Assembly (NCBI GenBank): GCA_024693065.1
Contig: JAILLP010000031.1
Coordinates: 1-57,332, forward strand
Direction: 5' to 3'
Source: Paludibacteraceae bacterium
GTDB taxonomy: Bacteria > Bacteroidota > Bacteroidia > Bacteroidales > Paludibacteraceae
DNA: 57,332 nt
Numbering within the stretch: position 1 is the stretch's first letter; each line of letters begins with the position of its first letter. Below are positions 2,276 through 50,300 of the stretch, piece by piece. The position numbers and the translations under genes are program-made. The notes under the pieces were generated by a model. It had not been told where the DNA came from. It saw nothing but the letters and a program-made list of their open reading frames with translations, and made no database searches.

Positions 2276-2487
2276 AATGGTATTAGAATGGTTTATGTCT
2301 CCTTAACTTTTAGAACCGATGCTTTCAACCTAAAAAAGAATGTGTTAGACACTTTTTCGCTATGACAATCGAATTCGTTTGCAATTTTCGTAAATATATG
2401 CGAGTTTAACAACTCTTTTTATGAAAAAAAACGTGTTCAATGTTTGAAAGATGACATTGCACACGTTTTGATTTTGTACCGGAGTGA

Positions 2488-2572
2488 TTATTCCACCACC
2501 ACCTTCCGTCCGTTCACCAAGTAAACGCCGGCAGGCAAGATTCCAAGAATGTGCCGGACCAACTCTAATTCA
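2488..2572 (-). pseudogene. Orphan fragment of a T9SS type A tag (displaced gene end)
   Basis: On the minus strand this stretch reads LPAGVYLVNGRKVVVE and then a stop, the end of a type A sorting domain with no protein in front of it. Bases 2489-2538 match 3975-4024, the end of the GH43 gene, at 49 of 50 positions. Homology stops at both edges: upstream the frame runs into the XRE gene, which uses another frame. It is either the displaced end of the GH43 gene after an insertion or the residue of a lost paralogue. Confidence 0.75.
2489..2538. repeat. 50-bp direct repeat, copy 1 (partner 3975-4024)
   Basis: Copy 1 of a 50-bp direct repeat; the only mismatch is caccaag here against cgccaag in copy 2. 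The two copies bound a 1.4-kb AT-rich segment with two genes. The arrangement resembles attL/attR, with the repeat made of the last codons of the GH43 gene. Confidence 0.8.
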
Positions 2573-3059
2573 GCTTATCTTTCAAAGGAACTAATTCCAA
2601 TCTAGCCTCTAGTTCCCAAGCAACCTTCGTGAGAATATCGAAGCCAACCGAATATTTTCCTTGTTCAATCTTGCTGATATTAGAGGCATCAATACCGGCA
2701 CGTTTAGCCAGTTCCTTAGCCTCCATATTCTTCTTTAGCCGGAGCTCCTTAATCTGTTGACCAATGCGCTTCCTTTCATCCTGAGCCATATTATCACTCC
2801 ATACTGTCAAGAACCCACAACCAAGATTATGATAGAAATGCAGGTCAATGAAAACCTTATACACCACGAATGAGGTGTCACCATCGGATTTCAGACAATA
2901 CTCCGAAAACAGCTTGCAAAAGAAATTTCCGTATTCGTCAATCTTATCATCCGGGAAATCTCCCATCTGAGGAATCTTATTTTTCACATAAAAAGAATCT
3001 CCTTCGTCTGACGTAATATGAAAGGTTCTTTCTTCTTTGTCAAATTCATATTTGAACAT
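2565..3059 (-). CDS. XRE-family helix-turn-helix regulator
   Basis: A small probable DNA-binding protein of 164 residues. The start at 3059 (MFKYEFDKEERTF) is preferred to the ATG at 3119, because a good promoter (TTTG at 3117-3120, TATATTTG at 3090-3097 on the minus strand) overlaps the upstream codons. The N-terminal ~90 residues have no recognised family. Residues ~97-158 form a Cro/CI-type HTH (IGQQIKELRLKKNM, ELAKRAGIDASNISKIEQGK). It is AT-rich compared with the GH16 and GH43 genes around it and sits inside the segment bounded by the 50-bp repeat. The target is unknown; self-regulation or control of the neighbouring barrel gene is possible. Similar HTH proteins occur as antitoxins and phage-type regulators, but no toxin is seen beside it. 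Confidence 0.85.
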   Translation of the reverse strand: MFKYEFDKEERTFHITSDEGDSFYVKNKIPQMGDFPDDKIDEYGNFFCKLFSEYCLKSDGDTSFVVYKVFIDLHFYHNLGCGFLTVWSDNMAQDERKRIGQQIKELRLKKNMEAKELAKRAGIDASNISKIEQGKYSVGFDILTKVAWELEARLELVPLKDKLN

Positions 3060-3089
3060 GTTTTTAAATTTATAGTTAATAATATGTCG

Positions 3090-3120
3090 CAAATATAAAT
3101 TTTCTTTTCTAATTAGCAAA
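3090..3120 (-). promoter_or_regulatory. Bacteroidetes-type promoter for the XRE regulator
   Basis: On the minus strand TTTG (3117-3120), a 19-base spacer and TATATTTG (3090-3097) match the Bacteroidetes -33/-7 consensus. Transcription would begin near 3083, about 25 bases before the chosen start codon. Confidence 0.65.
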
Positions 3121-3326
3121 TAAATTTTCCCATTAATTTGTTAAATAACCTTTTAATTGGTATATTTACCCATTACAAGAACTTATTTAACACAATGCAA
3201 TTTATATGACTGATTTTTCAGATAGTTAAGCCGGAAAAACTATATATAATTATATTACAAACAAAGATAAGTTTCTGATTATTTACCATTTTCATTTATA
3301 ATATGAGAAAGGGATCATATGGCTGC

Positions 3327-3821
3327 CTAAAAACGATAGGTGGCCCAAACACCCAATGAACCGATGCCAATATAGGGTATCCACGACCGATCCCGATTCT
3401 CCTGGACTCCAAACACACCAATATCTGTAGAGATATCCCAATGTTCACTTACACGGAAACGCAAAGAAGGATTCAATCCAAAACGAAACATTAGAAAAAC
3501 GTTTTCCTCACCCAAGGTCCACCCCCAGCAAGCATCAGTCTTTAAATCAAGAAAGAAAAAATCATTATGCCACGGAGTGAATCTCAGGAATGGTTCTACC
3601 ATACCAAAACTCTTATCTGCCTGTGAATTATATCCCATGCCAATACCAGTTCCCATTGCGAAGAAATCATTAAATTCATAGCCTATAGTTGGCTCTAATG
3701 CAAGCGTGAAATAATCCGTATATGAAATCGACGTCGTGAAACCTAAATCAAAGTGTTTTTCGGACATCGCTGAAAGATGGACTCCAAGAGTCAATAGTAA
3801 AATAATCGATAACTTCTTCAT
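3327..3821 (-). CDS. Small outer-membrane beta-barrel protein
   Basis: A 164-residue protein with a signal peptide (KKLSIILLLTLGVHLSAMS) and alternating hydrophobic strands rich in Tyr, Phe and Gly, ending in the aromatic residue typical of outer-membrane barrels (WATYRF). Features such as TIGYEFNDFFAMGTGIGMGY and PFLRFTPW suggest an OmpW/OmpX-sized barrel of about eight strands. No enzymatic motif is seen. It is AT-rich like the adjacent XRE gene and shares the repeat-bounded segment with it, so the two may have arrived together. A minus-strand TATATTTG (3859-3866) lies upstream as a possible -7 element. Confidence 0.75.
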   Translation of the reverse strand: MKKLSIILLLTLGVHLSAMSEKHFDLGFTTSISYTDYFTLALEPTIGYEFNDFFAMGTGIGMGYNSQADKSFGMVEPFLRFTPWHNDFFFLDLKTDACWGWTLGEENVFLMFRFGLNPSLRFRVSEHWDISTDIGVFGVQENRDRSWIPYIGIGSLGVWATYRF

Positions 3822-3973
3822 TTCAAATGCATTTTAGCTAATTCATGGTAATATAAAGCAAATATAATACATTCTATCTCTAATTTCATATTCAAATTCA
3901 CATTATCTATTCAGCACCTTCTCCTAAACATCTATCCTTAACCCAATATGAGATCATTAACAAACCACCTCCT

Positions 3974-6820
3974 CTATTCCACCACCACCTTCCGTCCGTT
4001 CGCCAAGTAAACGCCGGCAGGCAATTGACAATCCACCAAGGCATTAGCCTCAACACCGAAGGTGCGTATTAGGCGGCCATCCAACGTATAGATATAGACG
4101 TCGCATGCGCGGGGAGAGCGCACCGTCAATTGATTCTTTCCTGTATAGACCTCCACATCATCCATCCCTTCATCCGAGTAGACTTCATGCACTCCTACAG
4201 GCTCCACCTTCTTGTAACCTTTCGACTCGATCCACCGCGCGTAGGAACCGTCCGACTCGTCAGATATCGGTGCATAATGTACTTTCTCCGAATCGAAACA
4301 GAAGGCGAACTGGCAGCTTGCGGTCTTGCCCGCCGTACCCAAGCCGACCACACCATTCAGCGTCGGCGTGGCGCTGAAGTTCGTCATGGCGGAAGAGGAG
4401 GAACTGCGTGGATAGAAGTAGTAGTAACCGTCATGCGTGCCCGAAGAGACAATCCTCCACTGCTGCTCGTGGGAGCCGGAGGAGTCCCGCAACGAGAGCC
4501 CGCCGTCCGTAGCGTCCAAAGCCTTTCCGGAAGCCACATCCGTCAGGATATAATAGTCATCCTTGGCGGAGACCCTGAACGAGAGGTTGATGTCGTCATT
4601 GTCCTCCGTCAGGGCCAGCTTGCCCTCCTTGTTGGACAATATCCTGTTCGCGTTCTTGGAGAGCAAGAGGTAGGTCTTGCCCGGCTCAAACGTCTCCACA
4701 CGCCTATAGCGGTTCAGCTTATCGAACAAATCGAGGCTCCACTCCCCGTAGAAACGGATGATCGGATAGCCACTGCGCATATCGATCGGCAACCAGATGT
4801 GCCATGACTCGCCCACGTTGGCGTCCGGGAAGTAGTCTCCGCCCTTCCATCGGTCACCCATGTAGATGTAGGCATCATACTTGCCCGGCACCTTGAATAC
4901 GTAGTTGCTTTGGCTACAGTAAGACTTGTTAGCATTCGCGTCCACGCACGGGTTGCCATTGTCCGCCCAACCCGACAGCGGGAGCTGTGAATAGGAGGAG
5001 TGGGCAGGGTTCGGGTCCCAACCCGTACAGCCCGAGGTGATTGCCACGAAGCGTTGGTGGTACTTGAATATAGCGGGAGCCTCATACTGCTTGTCGACGA
5101 ACATGCGTTCCCACGTGTTGCTCAGGTCCAGGAAGTCATCCTTCAGTAGGGTGCCGTGCATCGTCATGTTCTCCTCGGCCGACCCGAAGTGGTAACCCAC
5201 GTTATAGTCTGGATCGAACATCAATGTCTGGTCGCGCGAACCCGAAGGTTGCGCATCCCCCCTCGGACGCATCGTCTTCACGAACTTATACGGGCCTGTG
5301 ATCTTATCCGCATAGAGGATGGCCACGCGCGAGGCCGCATAGCCTGAGCCATTCTCCCAGTGCACCCACATGACATATTTCCCCGTGTTCGGACATTTCA
5401 TCACCTTCGGGCGCTCCAGTGTGCGGCCATAGTTCATATCTTGGTAATCGCTCCTTAACGGTTGCTCAGGGCATTCGTACGCCATGCACTCCCGCTTCCA
5501 GTTGTAGAGGTCCTTCGAGGTGTAGCAGACGATACCGTTGCTGCGCACAGGGGAAGGGCGGTAGTTCTCACCGAACCAATAGTAGGTGCCATCCTCATAG
5601 AGCACACATCCGCCATGCGCGTTGATATGCTTGCCCTCCGCATCGAGCCAGTCCATGCCCATGCGGATCGCCGAGCTACCGATCAGGAAGGAGTGGTAGG
5701 GTTGTCCGAAGGGGGCATCCACCCGCACGAGGTACCAATAGTGCTTTCCGTCCGAGCCGCTCTTGTCGCTATAGACACCCTTGCCGTCCGATGTGCCGTC
5801 CGTGCCCAAAAACTTCCCGCTTGAGACCACCTGCAAACGGATGTAGCGCTCCTCGTCCGGCGCGTAAGCCACCTTGAAGTGGGCGGCCGACGAAGAGGTT
5901 CCGTTCGCCATCTTCACGTCATACTCGCCCGAAGCGGTCAGGTAAGTGCCCGACGCCACGTTCTTCAGCGCATACGAGCCATCGCTCATCGCCTCGAAGA
6001 CGAACTGCCTCTTCGTGTCGTTGGAACGGTTCTTGATCTGCACATTGCCATTCTCGTTAGACAAATAACGGTTGCTGGCATGGACGATATAGTACTTCAC
6101 GCCTGCGGAGACCGGCGAGTTGCGTTCCGCCTTATAGGCATTGAGGGCGTCCGCCAGCTTCGTCGTGGCGGAGACCACCTCCGCCTGGGAGGTAGGCGAT
6201 TCGTAGACCGATTTCGCGGCGTCTATCTCAGCCAACAGTTTTTCTTGGGAACGCACAGGGTACTCCCCTTCCCCATCGCCGCCCTTTGTCGTCGAGAGGA
6301 AGAGCTCAGCCTTCTCGATGGTCATGTACAGACCGTCCGTGATCAGGGAAGAACCGTTCGCCTCACGCAGATACCAGAGGTGGAGCGTCTCACGTCCGTT
6401 CTTGTCCGAATAGACGCTGGCACCCGGCACAGTACCGTCCGTACCGAGGCAGAGGCTGTTGTCGGCGCATCGGAAGCGCACATAATCACCGCCGCAATCC
6501 TCCACGGAGAACTTGGCGACGTTACCCGTAGAGGAGGAGAACTCCGTGTTCCACTGCCCCGTCTTCGCCACGTTCGAATTACGTTGCACGCTCTTTATCA
6601 GGTAGGAACTACCCGACTGCACGAAGCGGAATTGCTGCGCCTCACCCGCGTTGAAGGTATGGAGGTTCGGTGTTCCATCCACCGACGAGAGCGCCATGCC
6701 CGAGGAGTGGAAGATATAATAGACCCCGTTCGAGGTGATATCCACCTTCGCGAATAGATTGCCTACGGAAAATATGACGGCGGCAAGCGCCCAAACTACA
6801 TATTGAAAAATGTTCTTCAT
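3974..6820 (-). CDS. Secreted GH43-type beta-propeller glycosidase with three beta-trefoil modules and T9SS type A tag
   Basis: A 948-residue extracellular enzyme. A signal peptide (residues 1-24) is followed by two ricin/RICIN-like beta-trefoil segments (~28-155 and ~240-370). These are recognisable from YYIFHSSG and YYIVHASN starts and repeated LGTDGT...VYSDK...WYL endings. The catalytic five-bladed propeller spans ~385-690: AHGGCVLYEDGTYYWFGEN, RDQTLMFD, EAPAIFK and TSGCTGWDPN. This pattern resembles the GH43 branch containing exo-beta-1,3-galactanases (GH43_24/34), so arabinogalactan-type side chains are a plausible substrate; the exact subfamily is inference. A third trefoil (~705-845) and a type A sorting domain (DVYIYTLDGRLIRTF ... 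LPAGVYLANG) follow. Its last 50 bases are duplicated at 2489-2538. Confidence 0.85.
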   Translation of the reverse strand: MKNIFQYVVWALAAVIFSVGNLFAKVDITSNGVYYIFHSSGMALSSVDGTPNLHTFNAGEAQQFRFVQSGSSYLIKSVQRNSNVAKTGQWNTEFSSSTGNVAKFSVEDCGGDYVRFRCADNSLCLGTDGTVPGASVYSDKNGRETLHLWYLREANGSSLITDGLYMTIEKAELFLSTTKGGDGEGEYPVRSQEKLLAEIDAAKSVYESPTSQAEVVSATTKLADALNAYKAERNSPVSAGVKYYIVHASNRYLSNENGNVQIKNRSNDTKRQFVFEAMSDGSYALKNVASGTYLTASGEYDVKMANGTSSSAAHFKVAYAPDEERYIRLQVVSSGKFLGTDGTSDGKGVYSDKSGSDGKHYWYLVRVDAPFGQPYHSFLIGSSAIRMGMDWLDAEGKHINAHGGCVLYEDGTYYWFGENYRPSPVRSNGIVCYTSKDLYNWKRECMAYECPEQPLRSDYQDMNYGRTLERPKVMKCPNTGKYVMWVHWENGSGYAASRVAILYADKITGPYKFVKTMRPRGDAQPSGSRDQTLMFDPDYNVGYHFGSAEENMTMHGTLLKDDFLDLSNTWERMFVDKQYEAPAIFKYHQRFVAITSGCTGWDPNPAHSSYSQLPLSGWADNGNPCVDANANKSYCSQSNYVFKVPGKYDAYIYMGDRWKGGDYFPDANVGESWHIWLPIDMRSGYPIIRFYGEWSLDLFDKLNRYRRVETFEPGKTYLLLSKNANRILSNKEGKLALTEDNDDINLSFRVSAKDDYYILTDVASGKALDATDGGLSLRDSSGSHEQQWRIVSSGTHDGYYYFYPRSSSSSAMTNFSATPTLNGVVGLGTAGKTASCQFAFCFDSEKVHYAPISDESDGSYARWIESKGYKKVEPVGVHEVYSDEGMDDVEVYTGKNQLTVRSPRACDVYIYTLDGRLIRTFGVEANALVDCQLPAGVYLANGRKVVVE
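3975..4024. repeat. 50-bp direct repeat, copy 2 (end of the GH43 gene)
   Basis: Copy 2 of the repeat at 2489-2538, coding for the last 16 residues of the GH43 protein plus part of the stop codon. Similarity ends at the stop codon on one side and within the LPAG codons on the other. Confidence 0.8.
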
Positions 6821-6910
6821 GGTATTATACTAAAAATAGCGCCGCTAAGGTAGCGATATTCATTTAAATGAGCAAATGGGGAGCGGGAGACGTTAGCAAT
6901 TCATAATTGT

Positions 6911-7306
6911 CCTAGGGCGTTGCCCTAGGCTATATGTGTTACGCCCTTTCAGGGCTCGGATGCGAGCATTGCGCAGAGCCACACATCCCCATAAATTCAT
7001 AATTCAAAATTCATAATTGCCATGTGTCGCCCTTTCAGGGCTCGGTTGTACCCGCCGTTTCATGCACAGGGGTTAACACCCCTGCCTGGAGGATGTCGCC
7101 ATAGGGCGTTGCCCTAGGCTATATATGTATCGCCCCTTCAGGGCTGGGGTTTGCGCATTGCGCAGAGCCCGCACATCCCCATAAATTCATAATTATCTTG
7201 TGTCGCCCTTTCAGGGCTCGGATGCGAGCATTGCGTAGAGCCGCACATCCCCATAAACTCATAATTCTTAATTGACTACGTCGAACTGACGTTTCAAAAT
7301 TCATAA
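6911..7306. repeat. Cluster of REP-like palindromic repeats and TTCNNAA heptamers
   Basis: The spacer between the GH43 gene and the next small gene (6821-7406) has no credible gene but is full of repeats. cgccctttcagggct (a gccct/agggc hairpin) occurs at 6942, 7028 and 7204, and with one change at 7131. The palindrome cctagggcgttgccctagg is at 6911, with a near copy at 7101. The block gcattgcgcagagcc...cacatccccataa follows three of them. Runs of the heptamers TTCATAA and TTCAAAA separate the units (6996-7016, 7293-7306). The 14-base gactacgtcgaact at 7274-7287 recurs at 29011-29024. The spacing of 73 to 103 bases is irregular, so this is a REP/MITE-type cluster rather than CRISPR. Confidence 0.8.
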
Positions 7307-7310
7307 TTAA

Positions 7311-18969: not shown

Positions 18970-21765
18970 ATGAAGAAAAATTTTAGCAAAAAGCTATTTT
19001 TCACATTGTTGGGAATGGGAGCGTCATTTGCGACCATGGCCCAGTCTGTGGTCGTTGAAGCGGAAAAGCCGACCAGCAGCGACTATGAGTTTAGTAAGCC
19101 AAGGAGCGAATCGAGTGGCAACGGAGGAAACTTAGGCTACTTCGACGAGGAAGGTGAGACCGTGAAGTACTCAATGAAAGCTCCAAAGGCGGGTTTCTAC
19201 CAAGTCTCCATGAAGTACATCGCTCAGTTCGACGCAACTGTAAGAATCATCATGGATAATGGTGCTCAATACAGCATCGACGTGGAAGGAAACTACAAGG
19301 ACGGTGAGAACTGGTGGCAACCATCATTGGACAACTACTGGTCAACCGACGCTAGCAAGATCCCTGCATTCTACTTGGAGGAAGGTGACCACACCTTCAC
19401 ACTCCTCAAGGAAACGTCAGGTTCCACTAACATCGATTACATCGAGTTCACTTTGACGGACATCACCGATAACGTAGTCACTAAAGTTAAGACAGACCCA
19501 AGCAAGATCGTGTTGACTCCATACGAGCAGACTTATCTGCGCGTCATCGGATACAATGCGGCTGGTCAGAAAATCGCTATGCCAATCAAATGGTCTAGCA
19601 ACGTGAAAGACGGATTGTACACCGCTGGCTCTTCAGAAGGCACAGACGAGGTGTCCTTCAAGATGGGAGACTACGACGCAAGCATCAGCATCAAAGTGCA
19701 GAAGCCTAGCAAACGTAGAGAGTTCGTCGTTTCCAAGCACGGAGACTTGAACACCTCTAAGGGTTATGTGGCAGATGGCAGCGGCAACAAGGTTAGTCTT
19801 GCCGGTGTAAGCTACTTCTGGAGCTGTTCTTCTAGATTGTGGTGGTGCAAGGAAAACGTGAAGTTCCTGGTTGACAAGTACAACGTTCAGGTTCTCCGTT
19901 TGCCAGTTTCCATCGCTCCATGCGGAAGCAACGGACAAACAAGCTGTAACATGGATAACTTGGGCAACATGGGTGGTGACGGTTTGTGGAACATGAACAA
20001 CTACGTCGCTGCGCCTATGAGCTCCAGGAAAATGGTGGACGAGGTGGTAAAGGCATGTATCGAGAACGATATCTATGTCATCATCGACTTCCACGAGCAC
20101 AAAGCTCAGGACTGGACTAGCACAGCCAACCAGTTCTTCACCTATTTCGCAAAGAAATGGGGTGAATATCCTAACGTTATGTACGAGATCTTCAACGAGC
20201 CAGTTGACGACAACGGTACTGTAGTAAACTACGCTAAGCAAGTGATCCCTACCATCAGAGCAATCGACCCAGATAACATCATCATCGTGGGTTCAACTCA
20301 ATTCTCCCGTCAACCAGACGGTGTGACTGGTGCAGGTCAAGGACAAACAAACATCGCCTACACATGGCACGGTTACGCTCAATACAACCACCAGACTGAC
20401 TGGCAGGGGAAAGACAACTGGAACAACGGAATCCCAGTTGTAGTAACTGAGTGGGGTTGCGACGCTGGCGGTGGTGACGGCGGCATGCACAACATCTTCA
20501 AAGAGCACGGTGTCATCAACTGCTTCTGGTCTATGAGTAACAAGGGCGGCGAGGACGAGAGATGGTCTATCCTCAAGACAACTTGCTACAAGAAGTCTGA
20601 TTGGAATGACGGCGATATGAACAGCAACGGTAAGAGCCAACTCTCAGCCGTATCAAGCTGGGTGAACTATAAGGCAACCGCAATGGCTGACGAGGTTGAG
20701 GAATTCGAGGCATCTGTTAGCAAGGGCGGAAAGGTATTCTTGCCTGCAGAAAAGGTATCCGTTTCTTGTACCGCAACTGGTGGTACTGGAAATTACACCT
20801 ACAAGTGGGAGCAGACCAAGGGTGACGCAGCAACTATCGCTTCCCCTTCTTCCGCTAAGACTGACATCACTGACTTGAAGCCAGGTACCAACGTGTTCGC
20901 TGTGACTGTTTCCGATGGTGAGGAGACTGAGACATTGGCCGTAACATTTGTTGTATACAAAGAGGGTTATGTTGATCCAGGTTTGATCGATGACGTGGCT
21001 GACAATGATCTTATCAGCCGTATCGGAGGTCAATGGGTTAATTTTGATGACGCTTCCGATTCAGGAACATCTCAGGCAAGCGTATCCGCTACAAACGGCA
21101 ACATCAAGGTAGACGCTAAGATGGGTCGTACGAACGGTAACATTCCTCCATATTGCGGTGTTGACCTCTACCTCGACAAGAACTCAACGGTAGAGTCTCC
21201 AGTTCCTTTCGACATCTCTGACTGCTCAACCATCACTTATAAGTTCAAAGGTTCTGAGCACTACTTCAGGGCTGCATTGTCTAAGAACTCCATCAAGGAT
21301 GGTAACTACCACTGCAAGTTGATCGAGGGATCTAACGAGTGGAAGGAAGTTTCTATTGCTGTCAGCTCTTTGGCTCAAGAGGATTGGGGTACTAAGGTGA
21401 CTTACGATCCTAAGGATGTCATCAAGTTCAGCTGGATGGCTAAGGGTGGTGACAACTCTTCTAAGACTTTGGAGATCGACGACGTGACTTGCGTCGGCAT
21501 GGAGTTCGAGGAGAACATGGATCCTCAAGGCGTTGAGTCTAGCGAGGCTATCAACAACACTTATCTCTATCCTAACCCATCTGAGGATGGCGAATGCGTA
21601 TTGTTCGTGTTGAACCGTTGCAAGGTTACCGTTACTGACATCGCAGGTAAGGTGGTTAAGGAGTTCGTTGCAATCCCTAACTTCGCTAACCAATTCAGCA
21701 TTAACGAGAAGGGCGTTTACTTCGTGAACGCTGACGGTGAAGTGTTGAAATTGATCGTTAAGTAA
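18970..21765 (+). CDS. Secreted GH5 cellulase with CBM6-like module and T9SS type A tag
   Basis: A 931-residue predicted endo-beta-1,4-glucanase. Order: signal peptide (ending ATMAQ, ~1-24), CBM6-like beta-sandwich (~26-165, VVEAEKPTSSDYEF ... STNIDYIEFTL), Big-type Ig domain (~170-250) and GH5 barrel (~258-560). In the barrel FNEP gives the acid/base Glu410, VVTEWGCD the nucleophile Glu494, and VIIDFHEH the substrate-site histidines. A PKD/Ig-like domain (~580-665), a second carbohydrate-binding-like sandwich (~680-840) and a type A sorting domain (LYPNPSEDGE ... KGVYFVNADGEVLKLIVK) follow. The GH5_2-like pattern fits cellulose, though mannan cannot be excluded. It has a long leader and its own terminator. 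Confidence 0.93.
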   Translation: MKKNFSKKLFFTLLGMGASFATMAQSVVVEAEKPTSSDYEFSKPRSESSGNGGNLGYFDEEGETVKYSMKAPKAGFYQVSMKYIAQFDATVRIIMDNGAQYSIDVEGNYKDGENWWQPSLDNYWSTDASKIPAFYLEEGDHTFTLLKETSGSTNIDYIEFTLTDITDNVVTKVKTDPSKIVLTPYEQTYLRVIGYNAAGQKIAMPIKWSSNVKDGLYTAGSSEGTDEVSFKMGDYDASISIKVQKPSKRREFVVSKHGDLNTSKGYVADGSGNKVSLAGVSYFWSCSSRLWWCKENVKFLVDKYNVQVLRLPVSIAPCGSNGQTSCNMDNLGNMGGDGLWNMNNYVAAPMSSRKMVDEVVKACIENDIYVIIDFHEHKAQDWTSTANQFFTYFAKKWGEYPNVMYEIFNEPVDDNGTVVNYAKQVIPTIRAIDPDNIIIVGSTQFSRQPDGVTGAGQGQTNIAYTWHGYAQYNHQTDWQGKDNWNNGIPVVVTEWGCDAGGGDGGMHNIFKEHGVINCFWSMSNKGGEDERWSILKTTCYKKSDWNDGDMNSNGKSQLSAVSSWVNYKATAMADEVEEFEASVSKGGKVFLPAEKVSVSCTATGGTGNYTYKWEQTKGDAATIASPSSAKTDITDLKPGTNVFAVTVSDGEETETLAVTFVVYKEGYVDPGLIDDVADNDLISRIGGQWVNFDDASDSGTSQASVSATNGNIKVDAKMGRTNGNIPPYCGVDLYLDKNSTVESPVPFDISDCSTITYKFKGSEHYFRAALSKNSIKDGNYHCKLIEGSNEWKEVSIAVSSLAQEDWGTKVTYDPKDVIKFSWMAKGGDNSSKTLEIDDVTCVGMEFEENMDPQGVESSEAINNTYLYPNPSEDGECVLFVLNRCKVTVTDIAGKVVKEFVAIPNFANQFSINEKGVYFVNADGEVLKLIVK

Positions 21766-22655: not shown

Positions 22656-22727
22656 GAATCAACTATTTGGTGGAACAAATATAAAGAAAAAATGAAGGAA
22701 TATCCCTTTTTATCCGTTCCCAAGTAT

Positions 22728-22735
22728 TACTTTTG
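22728..22735 (+). promoter_or_regulatory. -7 element for the PNPOx/MATE/kinase operon
   Basis: TACTTTTG fits TAnnTTTG and ends 17 bases before the ATG at 22753. It overlaps the alternative GTG at 22735, which argues for the ATG as the start. Confidence 0.5.
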
Positions 22736-22752
22736 TGAAAAAATCAAAGGCA

Positions 22753-23256
22753 ATGAAAAAATTAGTATTTTCAATTATCGTGTTGGCCGTACTGAGTGCG
22801 TGCTCCAGTGAAAAACGGCAAATCATCCAACCTTCCGACTATCAGACAAGCAACCGAGAGGGCATGGAGGAAGTGTATAATTTCATCAAAAGCTGCGAAT
22901 ACTATTTCATCGCTACGGTGGAGGGAGACCAGCCAAGGGTGAGGCCTTTTGGCACCATACATGTGTTCGAGGATAAATTGTACATCCAAACAGGGCATAA
23001 GAAGAATGTGGCGAAGCAAATCGCCCAAAATCCTAAAATAGAAATATGTGCCTACAATGGCAAACAATGGATAAGGGTGGAGGCTGTCCTAGTGGAGGAT
23101 GAACGTGTCGAGGCGAAGAAATCGATGCTGGACGCCTATCCTAACCTGCGCACTATGTACGACGAGAACGATGGCAATACGGCCGTTTATGTGCTCACCA
23201 ACGCTAAGGCGGACATCTATTCCTTCCCGATGGAAAAGAGGACAATCAATTTTTAA
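22753..23256 (+). CDS. Pyridoxamine-5'-phosphate-oxidase-like flavin-binding protein with lipoprotein signal
   Basis: A 167-residue protein of the PNPOx-like split-barrel fold that binds FMN or related cofactors (YYFIATVEGDQPRVRPFGTIHVFEDKLYIQTGHKKNVAKQI is characteristic across residues ~50-95). Unusually it begins with KKLVFSIIVLAVLSAC, a lipoprotein signal with an LSAC lipobox and Cys17. If processed it would be a lipid-anchored periplasmic or surface protein, whereas family members are normally cytoplasmic. The ATG at 22753 is preferred to the GTG at 22735, which lies inside the -7 element. MATE and kinase genes follow closely on the same strand. Confidence 0.85.
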   Translation: MKKLVFSIIVLAVLSACSSEKRQIIQPSDYQTSNREGMEEVYNFIKSCEYYFIATVEGDQPRVRPFGTIHVFEDKLYIQTGHKKNVAKQIAQNPKIEICAYNGKQWIRVEAVLVEDERVEAKKSMLDAYPNLRTMYDENDGNTAVYVLTNAKADIYSFPMEKRTINF

Positions 23257-23279
23257 ATCTTCGCTATCTGTAACTACCT

Positions 23280-24647
23280 ATGGCCAACAACCCCAAAGAA
23301 TTAGGCACGGAAAATGTGCGTAAATTGTTGATTGACTATTCTGGTCCCGCCATTGCGGCGATGATGGCTTCCGCCTTATATAACGTGATAGACCGGGCCT
23401 TCATCGGACAGGGAGTCAGTGCCTTGGCCATCGCTGGTTTGGCCATCACAATGCCCGTGATGAACCTTTCCGCCGCATTCGGTGCGATGATTGGTGCGGG
23501 AGGCGCCACACTGACCTCTATTAAGTTGGGGCAACAGGACACGTTGAGTGCGCAGAAGGTGTTGGGCAACGTATTCCTGCTGAATGTGGTCCTTGGCGTC
23601 ATATTCATGGCGGTGGGACTCGCCTTTCTGGACGATATTTTGTATTTTTTCGGGGCGAGTGAAAACACCATCAGCTATGCGAGGGATTTCATGCAGGTCA
23701 TCTTGATCGGTAATGTGATCACTCATTTGTATCTCGGGCTCAATAGCGTGATGCGCGCGTCGGGTCATCCTACCAAGGCGATGAGGATGACTTTCCTGAC
23801 CGTCGTCATCAACCTGATCTTGGCTCCGCTCTTTATCTTCTTTTTCCATTGGGGGATACGAGGTGCGGCCAGTGCGACGATAATCGCCCAAACGGTGGCC
23901 TTCCTCATCATCATGAAACATTTCTCCGACAAAAATAACATACTGCATTGGCGACGTGACATCTTCACTTTCGACAAACGGATCATCAAGGGCATACTCT
24001 CCATCGGAATGGCTCCCTTCATGCTGAACGCATGTGCATGTTTGGTCGTCATTCTTATCAATAGGGCGTTGACGGAATATGGAGGGGATCTTGCCGTGGG
24101 TGCCTATGGAGGTATCGTCAATAGCGTGTTGATGGTCTTCGCCATGATTGTCATGGGGCTGAACCAGGGCATGCAGCCGATAGCTGGTTACAATTTCGGT
24201 GCGCAAATTTACTCCAGGGTGCGTAAGGTGCTGAAGCTGACCATCCTCGCCGCCACCTGCGTGACATCATTCGCCTTCATCGTGTCGGAATCCATTCCTT
24301 ACTATGTGGCTAGACTTTTCACGACAGATCAGGAACTCATCAACGTCGCCATAAGGGGCCTGAGGATTTGCGCCGCTGCGTTCCCCATCGTTGGTTTCCA
24401 GATGGTGGCGTCCAACTTCTTCCAGTCAATCGGAAAGGCTTCCATGGCGGTGGTGCTATCCTCCACGAGGCAGTTGTTGCTGCTCGTGCCGTTGCTGCTA
24501 ATTCTGCCGTCTCACTTCAAAACGGTTGAGAGCGTCTTGGCGTGTATGCCTATTTCCGATGCGCTGTCCAGTATCATCGCATTCGTCCTGCTGAAGGTTG
24601 AAATACGCAAATTCAATAGACTGAAAGATAAACCGATAATCGAATAA
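23280..24647 (+). CDS. MATE-family efflux transporter
   Basis: A 455-residue inner-membrane multidrug/toxin extrusion antiporter with about 12 predicted spans. It opens with the family pattern (SGPAIAAMMASALYNVIDRAFIGQG) and has the mirrored motif in the second half (GMAPFMLNACACLVVILINRAL ... GLNQGMQPIAGYNFGA). The transported compound is unknown; drive by Na+ or H+ is family knowledge. It is 23 bases after the PNPOx gene and 17 before the kinase-like gene (two bases counting that gene's first ATG), so one transcript is likely. Confidence 0.93.
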   Translation: MANNPKELGTENVRKLLIDYSGPAIAAMMASALYNVIDRAFIGQGVSALAIAGLAITMPVMNLSAAFGAMIGAGGATLTSIKLGQQDTLSAQKVLGNVFLLNVVLGVIFMAVGLAFLDDILYFFGASENTISYARDFMQVILIGNVITHLYLGLNSVMRASGHPTKAMRMTFLTVVINLILAPLFIFFFHWGIRGAASATIIAQTVAFLIIMKHFSDKNNILHWRRDIFTFDKRIIKGILSIGMAPFMLNACACLVVILINRALTEYGGDLAVGAYGGIVNSVLMVFAMIVMGLNQGMQPIAGYNFGAQIYSRVRKVLKLTILAATCVTSFAFIVSESIPYYVARLFTTDQELINVAIRGLRICAAAFPIVGFQMVASNFFQSIGKASMAVVLSSTRQLLLLVPLLLILPSHFKTVESVLACMPISDALSSIIAFVLLKVEIRKFNRLKDKPIIE

Positions 24648-24651
24648 CCAT

Positions 24652-24659
24652 GGGAGGTG
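24652..24659 (+). promoter_or_regulatory. Strong Shine-Dalgarno sequence deciding the kinase start
   Basis: gggaggtg lies five bases before the ATG at 24665, unusual in a phylum that mostly lacks such sites. It favours 24665 over the ATG at 24650 as the translation start. Confidence 0.65.
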
Positions 24660-24664
24660 AAAGT

Positions 24665-25297
24665 ATGGAGAAGAATATTATCATCAGTATAGGTAGACAA
24701 TTCGGTGCGGGCGGAAGACGCGTCGGACAAGCGCTGGCAAAGGATCTGGGCATCGCCTACTACGATAAGGAACTCATCATGGAAGCCGCCAAGGAGTTCG
24801 GCTTCGCGCCTGTTTTCTTCGAGGAGAACGATGAGAAATCCGCATCCCTCTCGGGTAACGTGTTGCAATGGATGGAGAGCCTTGTGACCAACGGGTTGGG
24901 AAGTAAGAACTACCTTTCTCAGGACACTCTCTTTGATATGCAGTCGGAGGTGGTCCGTAAGGTGGCGGATAAACATTCTTGCGTCATCGTGGGAAGATGT
25001 TCGGACTATGTGCTTCGTGACCATCCCAATTGTGTCAGCGTCTTTCTTCACTCTTCCGATGAGGATAGGATAAAGAGAATCCAGGAACGTTCCGATCTCA
25101 CGAGAGAGGAGACCATCGCGAAGATGAGGATGCAAGACAAGAAACGCGCCGCTTACTACAACTTCTATTCCAACAAGACATGGGGAGAGTCCTCCACCTA
25201 CACGCTTTCCATAGATGTCTCTTCTATCGGCGTGGAAAAAACTGTTAAACTGATCGAACACTATCTTAGTTTGCGGGGACTGATTCCGGAGAAGTGA
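24665..25297 (+). CDS. Cytidylate kinase-like protein
   Basis: A 210-residue P-loop protein of the cytidylate-kinase-like family. ISIGRQFGAGGRRVGQALA at residues ~7-25 is the nucleotide-binding region, in which the usual Walker lysine is replaced by Arg, typical of this subfamily. YYDKELI follows, then a middle HSCVIVGRCSDYVL strand and LTREETIAKMRMQDKKRAAYY as the lid region. True CMP kinase (Cmk) is a separate protein in Bacteroidetes, so the substrate here is uncertain. The start is set by the SD sequence at 24652. It is the last gene of the PNPOx-MATE transcript. Confidence 0.85.
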   Translation: MEKNIIISIGRQFGAGGRRVGQALAKDLGIAYYDKELIMEAAKEFGFAPVFFEENDEKSASLSGNVLQWMESLVTNGLGSKNYLSQDTLFDMQSEVVRKVADKHSCVIVGRCSDYVLRDHPNCVSVFLHSSDEDRIKRIQERSDLTREETIAKMRMQDKKRAAYYNFYSNKTWGESSTYTLSIDVSSIGVEKTVKLIEHYLSLRGLIPEK

Positions 25298-35155: not shown

Positions 35156-38100
35156 ATGGTTCGCTTTATAACTATTCATAAAAGGCTGATTGCGCTCTTG
35201 TCGCTCCTGTTGATGGTAACGAGAGTGGATGCGGCCGTGCAATCTCATATCAATTCGGGTAACCCAGCGTATCCGTTTCCTCAGTTTTTATCGTATACTT
35301 TTGGCGATTCTCACAGTTTGGGTAATTTGGGTACGAAGAATGCGGATGGTGTTGTACATGCGGAGATGGAACAAGATATAAGAGACGCATGGCAGATCGC
35401 ATGTAATCATTTTATCTATACGGGGGATGAACTTGACGGAGTGAAATACATCAAAGGTAATGAGGGTATGCCTTATGACGGTTCCGAAGGTGACGGTTAT
35501 GCGTTGTTAGGTGCTGCATATATGGCTGACAAGACCACATTCGATGGATTATGGCTTCGTGTCCATGATAAAAGAATTACAAAAATCAGACGCCATATCG
35601 ATGGTGTGGTTAATTTCCCAAATTTTGACTATGAAGCGGGTGCCTTAATTGAGGCCGATGGAGAAGGTGTTGCGCCAGATGGTGCTTTTGACGTGGTGAT
35701 GGCCTTATATGTCGCTTGGAAGCAATGGGGCGATTACATGGGTATTAAGGATGCGACTGGTCAGCCTATATCTTATAAAAAGGATCTTATTGAAGTCGTT
35801 CAAGGTTTGGTTAGGAGAGGAAGATTTCAGGAAGTGTCGAATCCTACGGGAAAGATGATGTATAGTGGGTGCATTGGATTTGATGGCTTCATTAAAAGAT
35901 GTGACAAGGATGGTGAAGCTACAGGTTGGGCGTATTCTAATAATAAATTTGTGCCCGCAGGTTATCAGGCATTGAATTCTTGTTGTACTAGTCCATGCAT
36001 AGATTATGTTGCTCCTTCTTATTTCCATGAATTTGCTGATTTATTGCAGGATTTTAAGGATAAGTCCGCAGAGGAATTGGCGAATGACAGTGATGAAGAG
36101 TTGGATTTTATGATCATGCAATTCCGTAGAGCGGAGTCTTCTTCTGACTGGTTGATTTCTCAAACCACGAATTTAAGTGAAAAGCACATCCCTTGTGCGG
36201 GTATTGCTACGTTTAATGCAGAGGGAAACAAGATTACTGCAGTGAAAAATTATGCTGATGGTGAGGATTTCCGTTACTGTTGGCGTACTATTTTGAATTA
36301 CATGTGGCATGGCACTCCTACTTACACATGGAACGAGAATACTCATGAGATTGAGTATAAATCAAATACGTTTGAGTACGATGTTGCGAAGAAGTTTAAT
36401 GTTTTCTTGAATTCGCCTCAAAGTAGCCCTTGGAATACTGAATGTAAAACATTCGGAGGTGGTCCCGATGTGTCGTTTAAGGGTCCGATGACCTTGTCGT
36501 ATTATTATACTCCCGATGGAGTTGAACAATCCACTTTTAATTTGAATTGGATGCCTGGAGTGGGCTCTATCACAGCGGTCGCAATGCAGGATTATGATTT
36601 GATGGGTATGCTGTATCGTCAGTGTAACATCGAATGGGAGCCAGTTGGCGGTACGGATAACTATTTGGGTTCCGACCCTCATTATTACCATGGTTGGTTC
36701 CGTCATTTGGGTATGCTTGTCGCTTCTGGTAATTATCCTGCCGCATCTCAAATGAACCCTATGGCTAACATGAAAATATATAGGGCGATAAAAGATAGTG
36801 TCACTTTCTGTTATACAGGCGACAAATTCACCTATTTGCTCGATTATAGGAACTATGGCTCCGTTGACGCAGAGGATGTTGTTATTGTTGAAAATGTGCC
36901 GAAAGATTTTGTGTTTATCAGCGCTTCTGATGGAGGTGTATATAATGAGTCCAATAGAACTGTTACTTGGAAAATAGGTACAGTCCCTGGGTTTGTAACA
37001 GGTGGTTTGTCAAAAACGATGGGGCAGGTTTCTTATGAGGTGCAGGTGGGCCCGAATGCATCGGGGCGTTATTGTACTACAGCCGAAATCACTTGCTCTA
37101 ATGGATCAGGATGGACTTCCAACGAGTTCCCTAACTATGTGACAGCCACTTACCAACGAAACTGTGTGGATGTCATCAAACGTGCATTGATGATTGAGAA
37201 ACTTGCTGATGTCGAGATGGTTAATCCTGGTAATACGGTTACTTATACGATTAATTTCGAAAACTCATCTAAAGCGGGTTGGCTTGATGGTGGTCGTTCT
37301 AGGGTTAATGTGGCGTTTGCCAATTCGGGCGATGCGAATGGTTCTCAGTTGTGGCTTAAATTTAGGTTGTATAACGATGCATATGAGTCATATATCAATT
37401 ATGGTAACTATCGTGTTTCTTATTATATATATGACTCCAATCTTAAGTGCGAGGTCTCTTCTTCTGACTGTAACGTTGGATGGGGATGGTATACAGCGAC
37501 TTATGAGGGAAAAAGAGAACCGACAGATCAGGTGACTGTCTCTCACGAAACAATTGTGGAGGACAAAGATGAACATGGAAGGTGGAACCAGAGACTTATT
37601 CTTCGGTTCGCTCCTTTATTGGTGACAACTACAGGACATCTTTGCAATTATTATGGCATGGGAACCAGAATTCATAAGGGAGGTGCGGAGCCTTTACGTC
37701 TATTCGGCTATTTGTTCCCGTCAACGTGGAGTTCCACCAACTTTGGAGATGATTGGTCCTGGGATGCCAAAGCCTCTGATGCGGATGATGGTAATTATTA
37801 TCCGATTACGCCTTCTCATCAGTTGATTGATATGGAAACTGGTGAGTCGATAGAAATTCCTGTCAATGAGTATTCCCCAAATATTTGTGAGACCCCTCGA
37901 CATACGGTGGATAATATTCTGGTGGAGGAATTTGATGGTTATGTGTGGCGTCGTGTCTTGGGTACAGGTCCGATGGCAGGACGTGAGGCGAATAATGTGG
38001 TTGTGATTGATACTTTGCCTGCGGGAATGACGTTCGTCTCTTTCCAAAACAAGTGCCCTCTTCAAGACTACGGCGCTAGCTGGGATTCTTATAAAATTGC

Positions 38101-41100
38101 TGATGGACGATGGGTTGTGAAGTGGGAGATCCCTGTTATGCAGATAGAACAAAAGGGTTCGATTGTCTATACTGCTGAAGCTAGTTTCCCTTCTGGGAAG
38201 GATTGCTTGACGGATGATGAGAAAACAGAAAACGTGGCTTGGATTTTAGCGGATAAAAACTCTCCGGTGGGTGATGTGGCTGTCGTTACCGTGACGTGTG
38301 CAAAAGTCCCGGATCCGATTATTCCAACTACGTTGACAAAAGTTGCCGATAAAGATTCATATAGCGTAGGTGACCCGATTACATATACAATCGGGTACAA
38401 ACAAACGCATGGCGCCATCTTCAATAATGCGGGTGCTTCTACTCAGGATTGGACCTTAAGTGGAGCTTCTTTGTCAAATGGTACATTGAGTTTGCCAAAT
38501 GGATCAACTGCGAAGTTTAACAAGTCATATTCGAAAAACAGTTATGTGGAGATGAATTGCGCTTTTACATCTTATGCATCAACAGAAGTTGTTCTTCGTG
38601 ACAAAATAAGATTGGATATTCGTCTTGATTGGTCAACTATGAAGCTTACATGTTACGATGGAAATCAATTAAAAAAAGAGGCAAGTATTGTGTTCCAAGG
38701 AACGGAAGCCACATTGCGTATCCAATTGACTGATGGAATTATGCGTGTTTGGGTGGATAATGACACCACGAATTCAGAATCTTTTACAGTTGATAATCTA
38801 ACAACAACAACTGCTGGATGTTTAGGTTTTAATGGTATTGAGGCAGGAGACTTCAAATTCTCTAACATCCATGTCCATACCGACTACGCCTATGACCTCT
38901 CTATCGTGGACCTTGTCCCTGCAGAGGTGGAGGTTGATGAGAGCTCTTTCCAATCGTTCCATAACGGTTCCGCCGCTGGAACAGGTAAATTGCTGAAGGG
39001 TGCGGATGGTGACTCTATCGTTTGGACGGGTCTGGCGAATAACCCGATCGCCTTCGGTGACACCTTCACGGTGACGTGGAAAGGTACGGTGAAAGAGTGC
39101 TCTCAAAAAATAATCAACCTCGCGAAGGCTAAACTGCTTGGTCATGCCCATAATGAAATCATGGCCCAGGCGGTGAGCGGTTGTGGCGAGGAATGCCCGC
39201 TCACGAACACCTCTTTGCAAATCTCCAAAGATACGGTGTGCGCCGGAGAGTCTGTCAAACTGGTTGCGGGCCCTGTCGGAAACTATAAGTATATATTCTT
39301 TGAGAATGGTGTGGATATTACTGGGGAGTCAACTAGCAATACGCTTGAATTGACCCCGATTTCAGCGGGTAAATACAAGTATATGGTGTACGTTGTCTCT
39401 GGTACCACAAGGGATCCTTGCCATTCCCCAACCGACACGCTTGTCCTGACCGTGGAGAAACTGCCGGTCGGCTCGAACTTCATGATCGATCCGTTCTGCA
39501 AGGGAAATGCTGATGTCACCGCTTTCGAGAATGAGGTGAATAATATGTTGTCGAATGGTGTATCCTACTCTTGGTTCGATGCGCAGAATCAACCGACAAC
39601 CCAACCGGACATCAATGGATTGACGGAGGCGGGTGATTATAAGTTCTCTTATACCATGACCACTCAGTCGGGTTGCGAGAGCCGTCAGCCGAGCACGCTG
39701 GAGTTTACCCTGAGGGCAATCTCTGGTCCGACGGGTACGGGTATGGTCTCTTATATCCTGGGCGATACCGCCGCTAACGGAAAATTCGATAAGAACCTCC
39801 TTCAACAAGACCCTTCGGTGGTCGATGTGGAGAGCGGATATACCTACAATTGGTATGACGAGAATTACCAATTATTGCAGGGCGCTCCTATCCCGGATGT
39901 TCCTGCCGCTGGCTCGACGGTCACTTACCATTATTATGTGAATCGCACCCAACCTGTTGGCTGTGTGAGCGACACGCTCCCTGTCACTGTCGTTGTGAGC
40001 GGTACCACCGTGCCTGTCCCTGTAAATGTATCTTACTGCTTGAACGAGACGGCCCAGCCTATCACCGCTACTGTGAGTGAGGTGAGTGATTCCAATGCCT
40101 CTTGGGAGGTGGTCTATTATGACAGTGACGGAAATGAACTGACTAGCGAGGCGGATCGTACGCCTAATACCTCCGTCGCTGGTGCGATAACCTACTACGT
40201 CAGCCAGCGTGAGGTGGGTAACCCGGCTAACGAGAGCGGGAAAGTGCCGCTTGTCGTTACGGTTGTCGAGGTGCCTCTCCCTGACGTTTCCATGAACCGC
40301 ACCCAATATTGCAAGGGTGAGCAATATGAACCTTTGCAGGTGAAGAGCAATTCTCCTTTGTACGATGCGAACCGTTCTTCCTTCTCATGGTCTGTCGACG
40401 GACAGAGCGTGACGGGCGTTCCGTTGGCTCAGACCCAGACTGAAGTGGTGTCGTATGGTGTGGTGGAGTCTTATGAAATAGAATCGGGACACGTCTGCGT
40501 GAGCGATACGGTGAAGTTCGCGGTGAAGTCTACTTTCGTCCCTGTGGCGACGGGTTCTCTCTCCGTGAATTACCTGAAATCGGAGGCCGCGGCTGATGGA
40601 TCGTTCGAACCACTCTTGTCCAAGGATCCTAGTGCTGTCACTGCTTCCGACAACTCGGACTATGAACTGGTATGGTTCGATGACGCGATGAACGAATTGG
40701 GCACTACGGATCCTTCTCCTAAGAAAGATAATAGTTGGTCTGAAAATGAAGATGTGAGATTGACCTACTTCGTTAAGCAACGTCATAAGGAGAGCGGTTG
40801 CTTGAGTGACACGGTGCGTATCACGGTTATCTTGAGCGACGCATTGATGCCAAACACCTTCCCGATGAATTATTGCCACCATGCGAAGGCGTTCTCGTTG
40901 GAGAATAACGCTAGCATTAACACGAATAATGGTCAAGTTAGGGATATTGATTACGAACTGGAATGGTTCTCCCCTGAAGATAACTATGCCTCTCCTTTGG
41001 CTTCCGCCCCTGTGCCTAGCACGGAGACGGTCGGCGTGACGATCTATAAGGTGGCGCAGAAGCATAAGAATGATGGTACGGTCAGCACGAAGGCGGAGGT

Positions 41101-47328: not shown

Positions 47329-50300
47329 ATGAACATGAAAAACATGAAAACAATGTCTTTTTTAAGAAATTTGTCGAAATTCTTCTTGGTGGCTACGACT
47401 TTGACACTGGGTTGTATGCCTGCATTTTCGGAATTTACGAAAGTTCGATCTGATAATGGATGGAATGGTAAGGTCACTAAATTGGATGTCATTGGTGATT
47501 ATTACCAGTTCACTTTGGATAAATTCAGGGGAGAAATCGTCATAGAAACGGATATCGAAGCTGATACCATTTATTTGCCGGGCAATAATACGAAGGGTTG
47601 GGTGCTTGAGAATGACAAGGCTGTGAAAGTGCAGATCAACAACGAAACCTCAGGCTTCCTTTGCGTTAGCTACGACAGACCGACCAATTCCGTAAGCGTC
47701 GCTTATGGCTCTTGTAGCGGTACGATTTATGCGGATAAGGATAGGGTGTGTAAAACTACCGGAGGTGATGTGAAGTTCAAGGTGTTGAATGGTGACGCAA
47801 GCGCCTCTAAGCGTTGGGGTTTGCTCTCCTATGACGGCAAAGATACGACGTGGTTGTCTACCTATAATGATCGTGATAGTTTCGTTTATACGGTTACGGA
47901 CTCTATTGTGATGTTGCTGAAGTATACGACTTCATCTGGACTTGTCTCTTATTCCTCCGCAAAGGTGGGCCTGTCTTTGGCGGATTGCGGCTATAAGGTC
48001 ACTTCCAGCGTTACGAATATTTGCCCGGGTGACCCTGTGGTTCTTACTTCCAACTATACGGAGGGTACTACTTATGAGTGGAGACGTAATAACGGGAAGG
48101 TGCTCGCCACAACCACTGAGCCTACTATTTCGTTGAATCCTCTGAATTCGACTAAATACAAGCTTTATGTCGATGGCCTGTTTGCTGGTGATGCGGAAGT
48201 GAAGGTGGCAGGTTGCGGTTTCTATATCTCTTCCTTCTATCCTACGGAAATGTGTATGCAGGATTCCAACTCGTTGGTTGCAATCGGTGAGGATATGTTG
48301 CCGGATTTGGGTAATAACGTCTTCGATTGGCAAGTGTCCGAGGATGGTGAACTTTGGACTACCATCAAGACGAATGCGAGCAATCGTCTGAATGTATTCC
48401 CTACGGAAGATAGGTATTATCGCGCCGTTTATAACAAGACGGGGCAAACCACTTCGCCTTTCTTCTATGAGGCGCCTAATTGCGAAGACAATGGAGACTG
48501 CCGTGGATTGCAGACGAGGACTTTGTTCTACGAGTCCTTCGGTTACTTTATCGACGAGCACACTTACGTTTCCGATAAGGATGTCTTCGTCAACGACATG
48601 ACAGTGAAGGGTGGTGTCGCTGGCCGGAAAAGCGGTTCTACTGTCGGCTACGCAGGTAATTACTCGGGTGATAATAGTGGCGTGGATTATATGACTCGTA
48701 TCATGGCTACAGGAAATAGTGGTAATGGTTCTGGATACTATAGCGTAAGGGAAGATAGAGACTATGGTTCGTTGAATCTATTGACAGAGGGAACCACTAC
48801 CTACCACATCGAGAAATACATTGCACCTGACCCGAACGGATATGTGGTGCCAGCCACTACGTTTACTCGTTTGGGGGATGGTAAATCTAACCAGTTTGTG
48901 GGTACGGATGGTCACTTGTATCTGCAGGCGAACCCAGTACTGCCGGAATACACTTGGACGGAATATGAGGGTCGGAATAGGGCTTACCGTCTACAGGATG
49001 GTTACTATGCCATCGTGGCGAATCCGGATTCCGTGGACCATCATGACGGAAACTCTTATGTGGATTGTACCGATAATACAGGTAACGTGAACGGCGCCAT
49101 GTTGTTTGTGAACTGTGGTGAGACTTCCAAAAGTAAGGCCGCCATCTATGCGCAGCGTGTGCATTTGGGTTGTCCTGCGGACCGTTTCGCGTTCAGTATG
49201 GCGGTGAAGAATGCGACGGCTAAACGTACTACAGAAGACGGTACTCCACAAAACCCGATAAATGTTTCTGTTTATCTGTTGAAGGATCAGGGTTCCGACG
49301 AGTTGCCTGGTGACTATAGGACGATGGGATCTGTTCCTGCCGCAAGCATCTTGAATAATGAAATTGAATCTGGGGATATACCAGCGGGATCTGACGAATG
49401 GCATGAGGTTAATCAATACGTGCAGTTGGATCCTTCGCAAAAGGTGCAGTCTTTGTGGGTTGTCCTCTACAACAATGGTCCTTCCGGTAATGGTAATGAC
49501 TTGTTGTTGGATGATATCTCCTTCTCCGTATGTTTGCCTAAGGCTGAGCTTTCAGCCAAGGTGGGCGGTGAGTTGATTACAGGCGCGCTTACCGTTTGTG
49601 ACGGTAGTGACGTGGAATTGGTGGCGAAACAGAAGGGTGATTACATCCAAAATCCTGTTTACTTGTTCCAATATTACGATAACGACACCCAATCCTGGGA
49701 GGATATGAGGGATTATTCGGACGTTTCTACCTACAAGAAGACTACCGCAACAATCTCCGTGACAGATCCTCGTTTCGTTGGTGATGTGCAATATAGGGTG
49801 ATCATCGGCTCCAGTGTGGATGAATTGAGGGATGTGGAGTTGCATTCAGGGGATGTTTGTAACGAATTCCTCGTGGCTACTTCCGATATTGATATAAAGA
49901 ACACATACGGTGGTCCGATGTGTGGGGATAATCCAGAAGAAAAGGTTTGCTTCGTCGTCGATGACACTGTTACTGTTACGGGATGTCGTCAGTTGACGAG
50001 GAGTGATCACACATGGAAAATGTACTGGATGAGCGAGTCTGGCCAGATGCTGGTCGACACGATGGAGGTGACCGGTGTTGATTCCGACCAGATCCATTTC
50101 ATCATCGATAGGGATTATAACGTGAAGGTATTTGACCGAAACTGGAATTTGGTGGCTAATACGGACTCTGTAGGTATGTCGCAGATTATATTCGGTGGTA
50201 TCGATGAGGGAGGTTGTACCCATCAACAAAAATTCTCGTTGGTGGCGAAGCATGTTGTTAATTTGAATTATAATGAGTCTAGTACGATCGGTTGCGACTC

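What the first reader, a model, noticed from the sequence alone, without database searches (positions are those of the whole stretch)
2489..4024. Two-gene AT-rich island bounded by a 50-bp direct repeat of a gene end
Bases 2489-2538 and 3975-4024 agree at 49 of 50 positions, in direct orientation. The right copy is the real 3' end of the GH43 gene; the left copy is an orphan reading only LPAGVYLVNGRKVVVE and a stop. Between them lie an XRE regulator and a small outer-membrane barrel gene, both more AT-rich than the flanking glycosidase genes. This is what site-specific insertion at the 3' end of a gene leaves: the gene regains its end from the element and the old end is displaced. No integrase is present, so it would be a mini-island moved in trans, or a recombination between two sorting-tag ends. 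Using a T9SS tag as the exchange site would be new to me.
Basis: partly seen in the sequence, partly recalled or inferred. Interest (0 to 1): 0.72.

Follow-up and report, generated by a model that had tools for sequence, protein, structure and literature searches.

The report
Displaced gene end behind a glycosidase
In a probable gut bacterium, the last 50 bases of a sugar-cutting enzyme's gene occur a second time 1.4 kb further on, most likely because imported DNA was spliced in behind the gene and an older gene end was left stranded; it looks like ordinary recombination rather than a mobile element, though a relative seems to have reused such an end as a secretion tag.

Summary
In detail: 49 of 50 bases agree, the pair is unique in the 3.48-Mb genome, and the left copy is an orphan 3' end followed by a hairpin. 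Between the copies lie an XRE-type gene and a small predicted outer-membrane barrel.

A site-specific mini-island is not supported. No recombinase was named among 28 window proteins scanned; XRE and barrel were together at none of 9 other XRE-homologue places; the left border is a patchwork (orphan end, 25 bp of an opposite-sense LRR_5 gene, XRE stop); and in relative G003 the second tail copy is about 135 bp, not 50.

Relatives suggest another account. Behind GH43 genes 92-97% identical, seven genomes carry five unrelated sequences, each starting at or within about 10 bp of the stop codon. Window and G001 differ at 1 of 236 positions beyond the stop but at 5% in GH43. In G003 a giant gene behind GH43 ends, in frame, in a GH43-type tail identical to the orphan over the orphan's length.

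Most likely, recombination at the GH43 3' end added foreign DNA and stranded an older end. Chief rival: the orphan is the remnant of a G003-like giant gene. No true empty site was found, and several other gene ends here are breakpoints too.

The parts
2489..2538 (-). Orphan copy of the GH43-type 3' end (LPAGVYLVNGRKVVVE; TAA at 2488-2490)
   Evidence: 49/50 to 3975-4024; 51/51 incl. stop to the tail of the G003 giant gene, 50/51 to GH43 of G005, 49/51 to own GH43
3975..4024 (-). Right copy: true 3' end of GH43 (stop TAG)
2428..2469 (-). Hairpin with U-rich 3' arm just downstream of the orphan stop; terminator-like (inferred)
   Evidence: -17.3 kcal/mol for 2410-2488, z -3.65; not listed by the simple terminator scan
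2539..2563 (+). Scrap of a BspA-like LRR_5 gene, sense opposite to the orphan
   Evidence: 24/25 to G003:C42:33990-34014 (E 1.4e-4 for one genome), inside an 803-aa ORF with LRR_5; 2-mismatch match in an LRR_5 ORF at G000:C28
2565..3059 (-). XRE/HTH_3 regulator-like gene, 164 aa; three homologues examined are followed by a nuclease-like or CoiA-like partner, absent here
3327..3821 (-). Small outer-membrane-barrel-like gene, 164 aa
   Evidence: usual locus of the family elsewhere
3738..3973 (.). Segment nearly identical to G001 (1 difference in 236); its edge lies at the GH43 stop
3974..6820 (-). GH43-like glycosidase with lectin domains; 93.5-96.6% DNA identity to six relatives

Best explanation
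The orphan is an older GH43-type gene end, stranded when foreign DNA was added directly behind GH43 by recombination at the gene's 3' end. Proposed steps: (1) incoming DNA with GH43-end homology, followed by the barrel (and, in the same or a later step, XRE), paired with the resident gene; (2) it joined homologously on the GH43 side, leaving a complete gene with a TAG-type end; (3) on the far side it joined without homology inside the resident TAA-type end, 50 bp before the stop, leaving that stub with its hairpin. Shown: the two ends, the foreign neighbours, the edge of the segment shared with G001 at the GH43 stop, the patchwork at the left border, and a comparable second tail in G003. Inferred: order of events, one-sided homology, and that the stub was GH43's own end. 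The 1.4 kb are a mosaic, not an element; I expect no function for the stub beyond ending transcription.
For: Downstream of the GH43 stop, 7 genomes with 92-97% identical GH43 carry 5 unrelated sequences (an eighth row, G013, was cut at a wrong place and dropped). Alignment to the window ends -4 to +10 bp from the stop in 5 of 6 relatives; the sixth, G001, runs into the barrel to its contig end. G000/G001: 1 difference in 236 bp beyond the stop against 141/2832 in GH43 (Fisher p 2.6e-4; against the nearest 727 bp p 0.006). A 42-base tail pattern with up to 3 mismatches occurs at 8 places in 6 of 358 family genomes: 6 GH43 ends, the G003 giant gene and this orphan (the G006 GH43 end is too divergent for it). 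In G003 the second copy is fused in frame to the giant gene, 129/135 to G005 GH43. LRR_5 scrap, and XRE without a partner, at the left border. Of 93 tag ends plus the orphan, the other long matches are among neighbours or apparent paralogues.
Against: No genome shows the ancestral join of a GH43 end with 2431-2488: that stretch has no genus match better than about E 0.2 (list cut short). GH43 itself shows no G001-like tract, so the homologous arm is not visible. The orphan is identical to the tail of another gene (G003 giant, 51/51) and slightly less like any GH43. Of 17 window genes tested, GH16 (5 of 5 relatives), the 10479 gene (3 of 3) and 21915 (4 of 5) also lose alignment at or before the gene end, and 18970 within 64 bp of it in 4 of 5, so GH43's end is not special. 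All these genomes are in many contigs, and the comparable G003 arrangement spans two of them.
Confidence: 0.5

Rival explanations
1. The orphan is the last 50 bp of a giant T9SS-type gene like that of G003, which stood behind GH43 and ended in a GH43-type tail. Its body was deleted or replaced by XRE and barrel.
For: The orphan equals the tail of the G003 giant gene at 51/51 bases incl. stop, 53/53 in the alignment with flank. In G003 that gene appears to lie between GH16 (with a 217-aa gene) and GH43, as the orphan does here (adjacency inferred over two contig ends that meet about 218 bp apart in homologue coordinates, in a gene with internal repeats).
Against: No trace of the giant body was seen between the two tails here. 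The window's own giant homologue (47329-54339) has a CHU_C tail and lies elsewhere. Sequences after the stop differ. One or two bases of better match are weak evidence.
Confidence: 0.27
2. Tandem duplication of the GH43 3' region, then insertions and deletions that left 50 bp of the second copy.
For: Direct orientation and near identity.
Against: Stop codons and flanks differ between the copies. The left copy is cut by an unrelated LRR_5 scrap. Two full GH43 genes side by side were not seen in the loci fetched, but were not searched for specifically.
Confidence: 0.1
3. Site-specific mini-island moved in trans, with the GH43 3' end as attachment site.
For: Insertion-like anatomy with a direct repeat of a gene end; foreign content; sharp edge at the stop against G001.
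Against: No recombinase among 28 window proteins scanned. The two copies in G003 differ at 5 of the last 50 and 13 of the last 135 bases. XRE and barrel together at 0 of 9 other places. No second site flanked by these borders among the 8 tail places in 358 genomes.
Confidence: 0.07
4. Assembly artefact: chimeric join of a draft genome at a short repeat.
For: Window and relatives are assemblies in many contigs; the G001 contig ends inside the barrel.
Against: The barrel-GH43 join occurs also in G001. A chimera at the repeat would still need a second copy beside the XRE gene.
Confidence: 0.06

Closest known systems
Homology-facilitated illegitimate recombination (HFIR); PMC3240628, outline and abstract seen
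   Same: Integration with homology at one end of linear DNA and a non-homologous join at the other would leave a full gene, foreign DNA and a truncated older end.
   Different: Described there as experimental integration; here it is inferred from one locus, and homologous arm and donor are not seen.
Displaced orphan 3' ends and immunity genes at Rhs and T6SS loci (PMC3967940 and PMC5361080, passages seen)
   Same: A new segment arrives behind a conserved part and an older 3' part remains downstream as an orphan; PMC5361080 proposes, with 'perhaps', HFIR for it.
   Different: Here the stranded piece is a conserved end of a glycosidase gene, with no toxin or immunity gene, and the gene's product keeps that end.
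Genomic islands integrated at gene 3' ends by tyrosine recombinases (recalled)
   Same: Direct repeat of a gene end flanking foreign DNA.
   Different: No integrase found, no fixed core length, no second site found.

Membership tests
Site-specific integrative island | Recombinase in the element or nearby | tested here: not met
   28 window proteins against Pfam, none a recombinase; not scanned with Pfam: 35156-43630, 56785-57330, 2-397 and short ORFs. A recombinase in trans was not tested.
Site-specific integrative island | Same borders or same element at another site | tested here: not met
   Tail pattern at 8 places in 358 genomes, no second flanked copy of this island; XRE and barrel together at 0 of 9 other places
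Site-specific integrative island | Constant, near-identical core repeat | tested here: not met
   50 bp with 1 difference here; about 135 bp with 13 differences in G003
Site-specific integrative island | Empty site in relatives | tested here: inconclusive
   G009 and G010 have GH43 and GH16 tail to tail, 65 bp apart, without the island, but 2431-2488 has no genus match better than about E 0.2
Site-specific integrative island | Circular form | not testable with these tools
   needs reads
HFIR product | Homologous anchor on one side | tested here: inconclusive
   GH43 is shared, but the near-identical tract with G001 stops at the GH43 stop
HFIR product | Non-homologous join on the other side | tested here: met
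   Orphan abuts an opposite-sense LRR_5 scrap and the XRE stop; donor unknown, so microhomology was not testable
T9SS type A sorting domain | Match to TIGR04183 over its cut-off | tested here: not met
   GH43 end 16 bits against 23; GH16 end 26 bits, over it

The most novel reading that the evidence does not exclude
The GH43 3' end is a recurrent junction at which neighbours are exchanged between species, and its stranded ends serve as ready-made secretion tags: in G003 a giant gene has captured one in frame (tail capture), while in the window the stub stayed orphan. Sorting-tag DNA would then be both a recombination handle and a way for newcomers to become secreted cargo.
Probability: 0.2. 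Interest if true: 0.62.

Novelty: new variant of a known kind. Interest (0 to 1): 0.36.

Why it matters
It shows in one locus how secreted-enzyme neighbourhoods of gut Bacteroidales can be reshuffled at gene ends without a mobile element in sight, and gives a footprint (orphan 3' end, foreign genes, hairpin) that can be searched for. If stranded tags are recaptured by other genes, as G003 suggests, it would be a simple route by which proteins join the secreted set. Literature searches on T9SS tags with recombination, fusion, gene conversion or orphan repeats returned 0, 1, 0, 283 (10 listed) and 1 papers; from titles and abstract starts I recognised none that describes this. They cover open-licence full texts only.

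Tried and rejected
Sharing of tag DNA as a common habit of this genome: not seen. In 93 of 101 TIGR04183 places plus the orphan the other matches of 25 bp or more lie in neighbours on one contig or in apparent paralogues, apart from one 27-bp match (C19/C29); bodies were not compared, and for a few places the frame ran far past the match (up to 441 bases), so those are not true tag ends.

The island as a unit in other genomes: not found. A flank match for 2431-2488 in the genus: none better than about E 0.2. XRE as part of a known defence pair: homologues in G006 and G012 are followed by CoiA_N-like genes (below Pfam's cut-off) and in G008 by an HNH_3 gene; PADLOC gives the window XRE only HTH-region matches. 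Not pursued.

The GH43 end as a unique breakpoint: weakened by the control (GH16, 10479, 21915 and nearly 18970 behave alike; 18970 and 21915 are also among the more diverged genes).
Full report
Setting. The window is contig C22 of an unnamed 3.48-Mb genome in 37 contigs.

The observation. The two 50-bp copies agree at 49 positions and occur nowhere else in the genome at up to 3 mismatches. The orphan stop is TAA, the GH43 stop TAG. A stable hairpin with a U-rich 3' arm follows the orphan (z -3.65); the simple terminator scan did not list it. Bases 2539-2563 match, at 24 of 25, an ORF of G003 with LRR_5 repeats, on the other strand, with a 2-mismatch match in an LRR_5 ORF of the own genome. 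The XRE stop follows at 2565. So the left border is a patchwork of scraps.

What relatives show at the GH43 end. GH43 is 92.5-96.6% identical among seven genomes. Past the stop there are five unrelated sequences: G000 with G001, G009 with G010, G003, G005, and G006, which shares about 9 bases with G001. The next genes are: barrel (G000; G001, up to its contig end), GH16 tail to tail (G009, G010), a giant gene (G003), an LRR_5 gene (G005) and genes in the opposite direction (G006). Alignment with the window ends between -4 and +10 bp of the stop in five of six relatives. This is not unique: of 17 genes tested, GH16 (5 of 5), 10479 (3 of 3) and 21915 (4 of 5) also lose alignment at or before the gene end and 18970 within 64 bp in 4 of 5, while the other 12 mostly run on.

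A shared segment with its edge at the stop. Window and G001 differ at one position (an indel) in 236 bp from the GH43 stop into the barrel, but at 141 of 2832 positions in GH43 (Fisher p 2.6e-4). Fourfold sites of other genes are 40-97% identical between window and G001, so the segment was probably exchanged recently. G001 also keeps a 62% barrel homologue at the family's usual locus, also intact in G003 and G005. In the window's genome that locus (C27) holds another gene and only a scrap of a barrel 3' end (22 of 30 bases; 0 of 500 block shuffles reach this). XRE has only distant homologues: 10 of 358 family genomes including its own at E 1e-10. The three examined in detail are followed by CoiA_N-like or HNH genes, and none of 9 places has a barrel within the DNA held.

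The parallel in G003. A giant gene whose 3' part ends C40 and whose 5' part begins C46, next to GH43, ends in a GH43-type tail: 129 of 135 bases to G005 GH43, 122 of 135 to G003's own GH43, falling off further upstream. That the two parts are one gene is inferred; it has internal repeats. The window's giant homologue ends in a CHU_C domain instead. The orphan is identical to this tail over its 51 bases. In 358 family genomes a 42-base tail pattern occurs at 8 places in 6 genomes: six GH43 ends, the giant gene and the orphan; the more divergent G006 end is missed by it.

Wider rearrangement. In G003, G005, G006, G009 and G010 GH16 lies beside the 25389 block (G009 on a second contig with a GH16 fragment), and in G001, G003, G005, G006 and G010 the gene at 1-397 lies beside or within 2.4 kb of the 22706-25255 segment. 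In the window, GH16 lies between the 1-397 gene and the orphan, and the block from GH43 to about 22580 has the other orientation relative to both flanks (22706-25255 itself varies in orientation among relatives). By my reading at least two inversions or an equivalent move are needed. The locus is a much rearranged one, which favours ordinary recombination.

Interpretation. A stranded older gene end with foreign genes between is well supported in outline. Which gene the orphan belonged to, GH43 itself or a G003-like giant gene, is not settled; I put 0.5 and 0.27. Site-specific insertion is unlikely (0.07). The closest precedents are displaced 3' ends at Rhs and T6SS loci (PMC3967940, PMC5361080, passages seen) and HFIR (PMC3240628, abstract and outline). 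The T9SS label of this tail rests on motif and context, since it does not reach the TIGR04183 cut-off.

Noticed in passing
G000:C27:130437-131870 (L178): Usual locus of the barrel family: the body is replaced by a 304-aa gene and a scrap of a barrel 3' end (GHWATYRF stop) remains, a second orphan 3' end in this genome; in G010 the gene has an internal deletion.
   Followed up: partly
window 6898-7309: Copies of a dispersed intergenic repeat; a 50-70 bp stretch of L053 that also matches here (7260-7308) matches dozens of places in the own genome.
   Followed up: no
window 22706-25255: This segment (PNPOx-like, MatE and cytidylate-kinase genes) lies in opposite orientation in G001/G003 compared with G005/G006/G010, relative to the 1-397 gene.
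   Followed up: no
L160:176-3943 (G008:C20): A Cas12a-type gene (RuvC_1, REC1, REC2, NUC and PI domains) lies beside an XRE homologue and an HNH gene.
   Followed up: no
window 3974-6820 against 677-2275 and 18970-21765: GH43 is more similar between species (83-92% at fourfold sites) than GH16 (58-73%) or the GH5 gene (54-78%), suggesting recent exchange; but the nearby permease (94-97%) and enolase (86-94%) genes are as conserved, so this is weak.
   Followed up: partly
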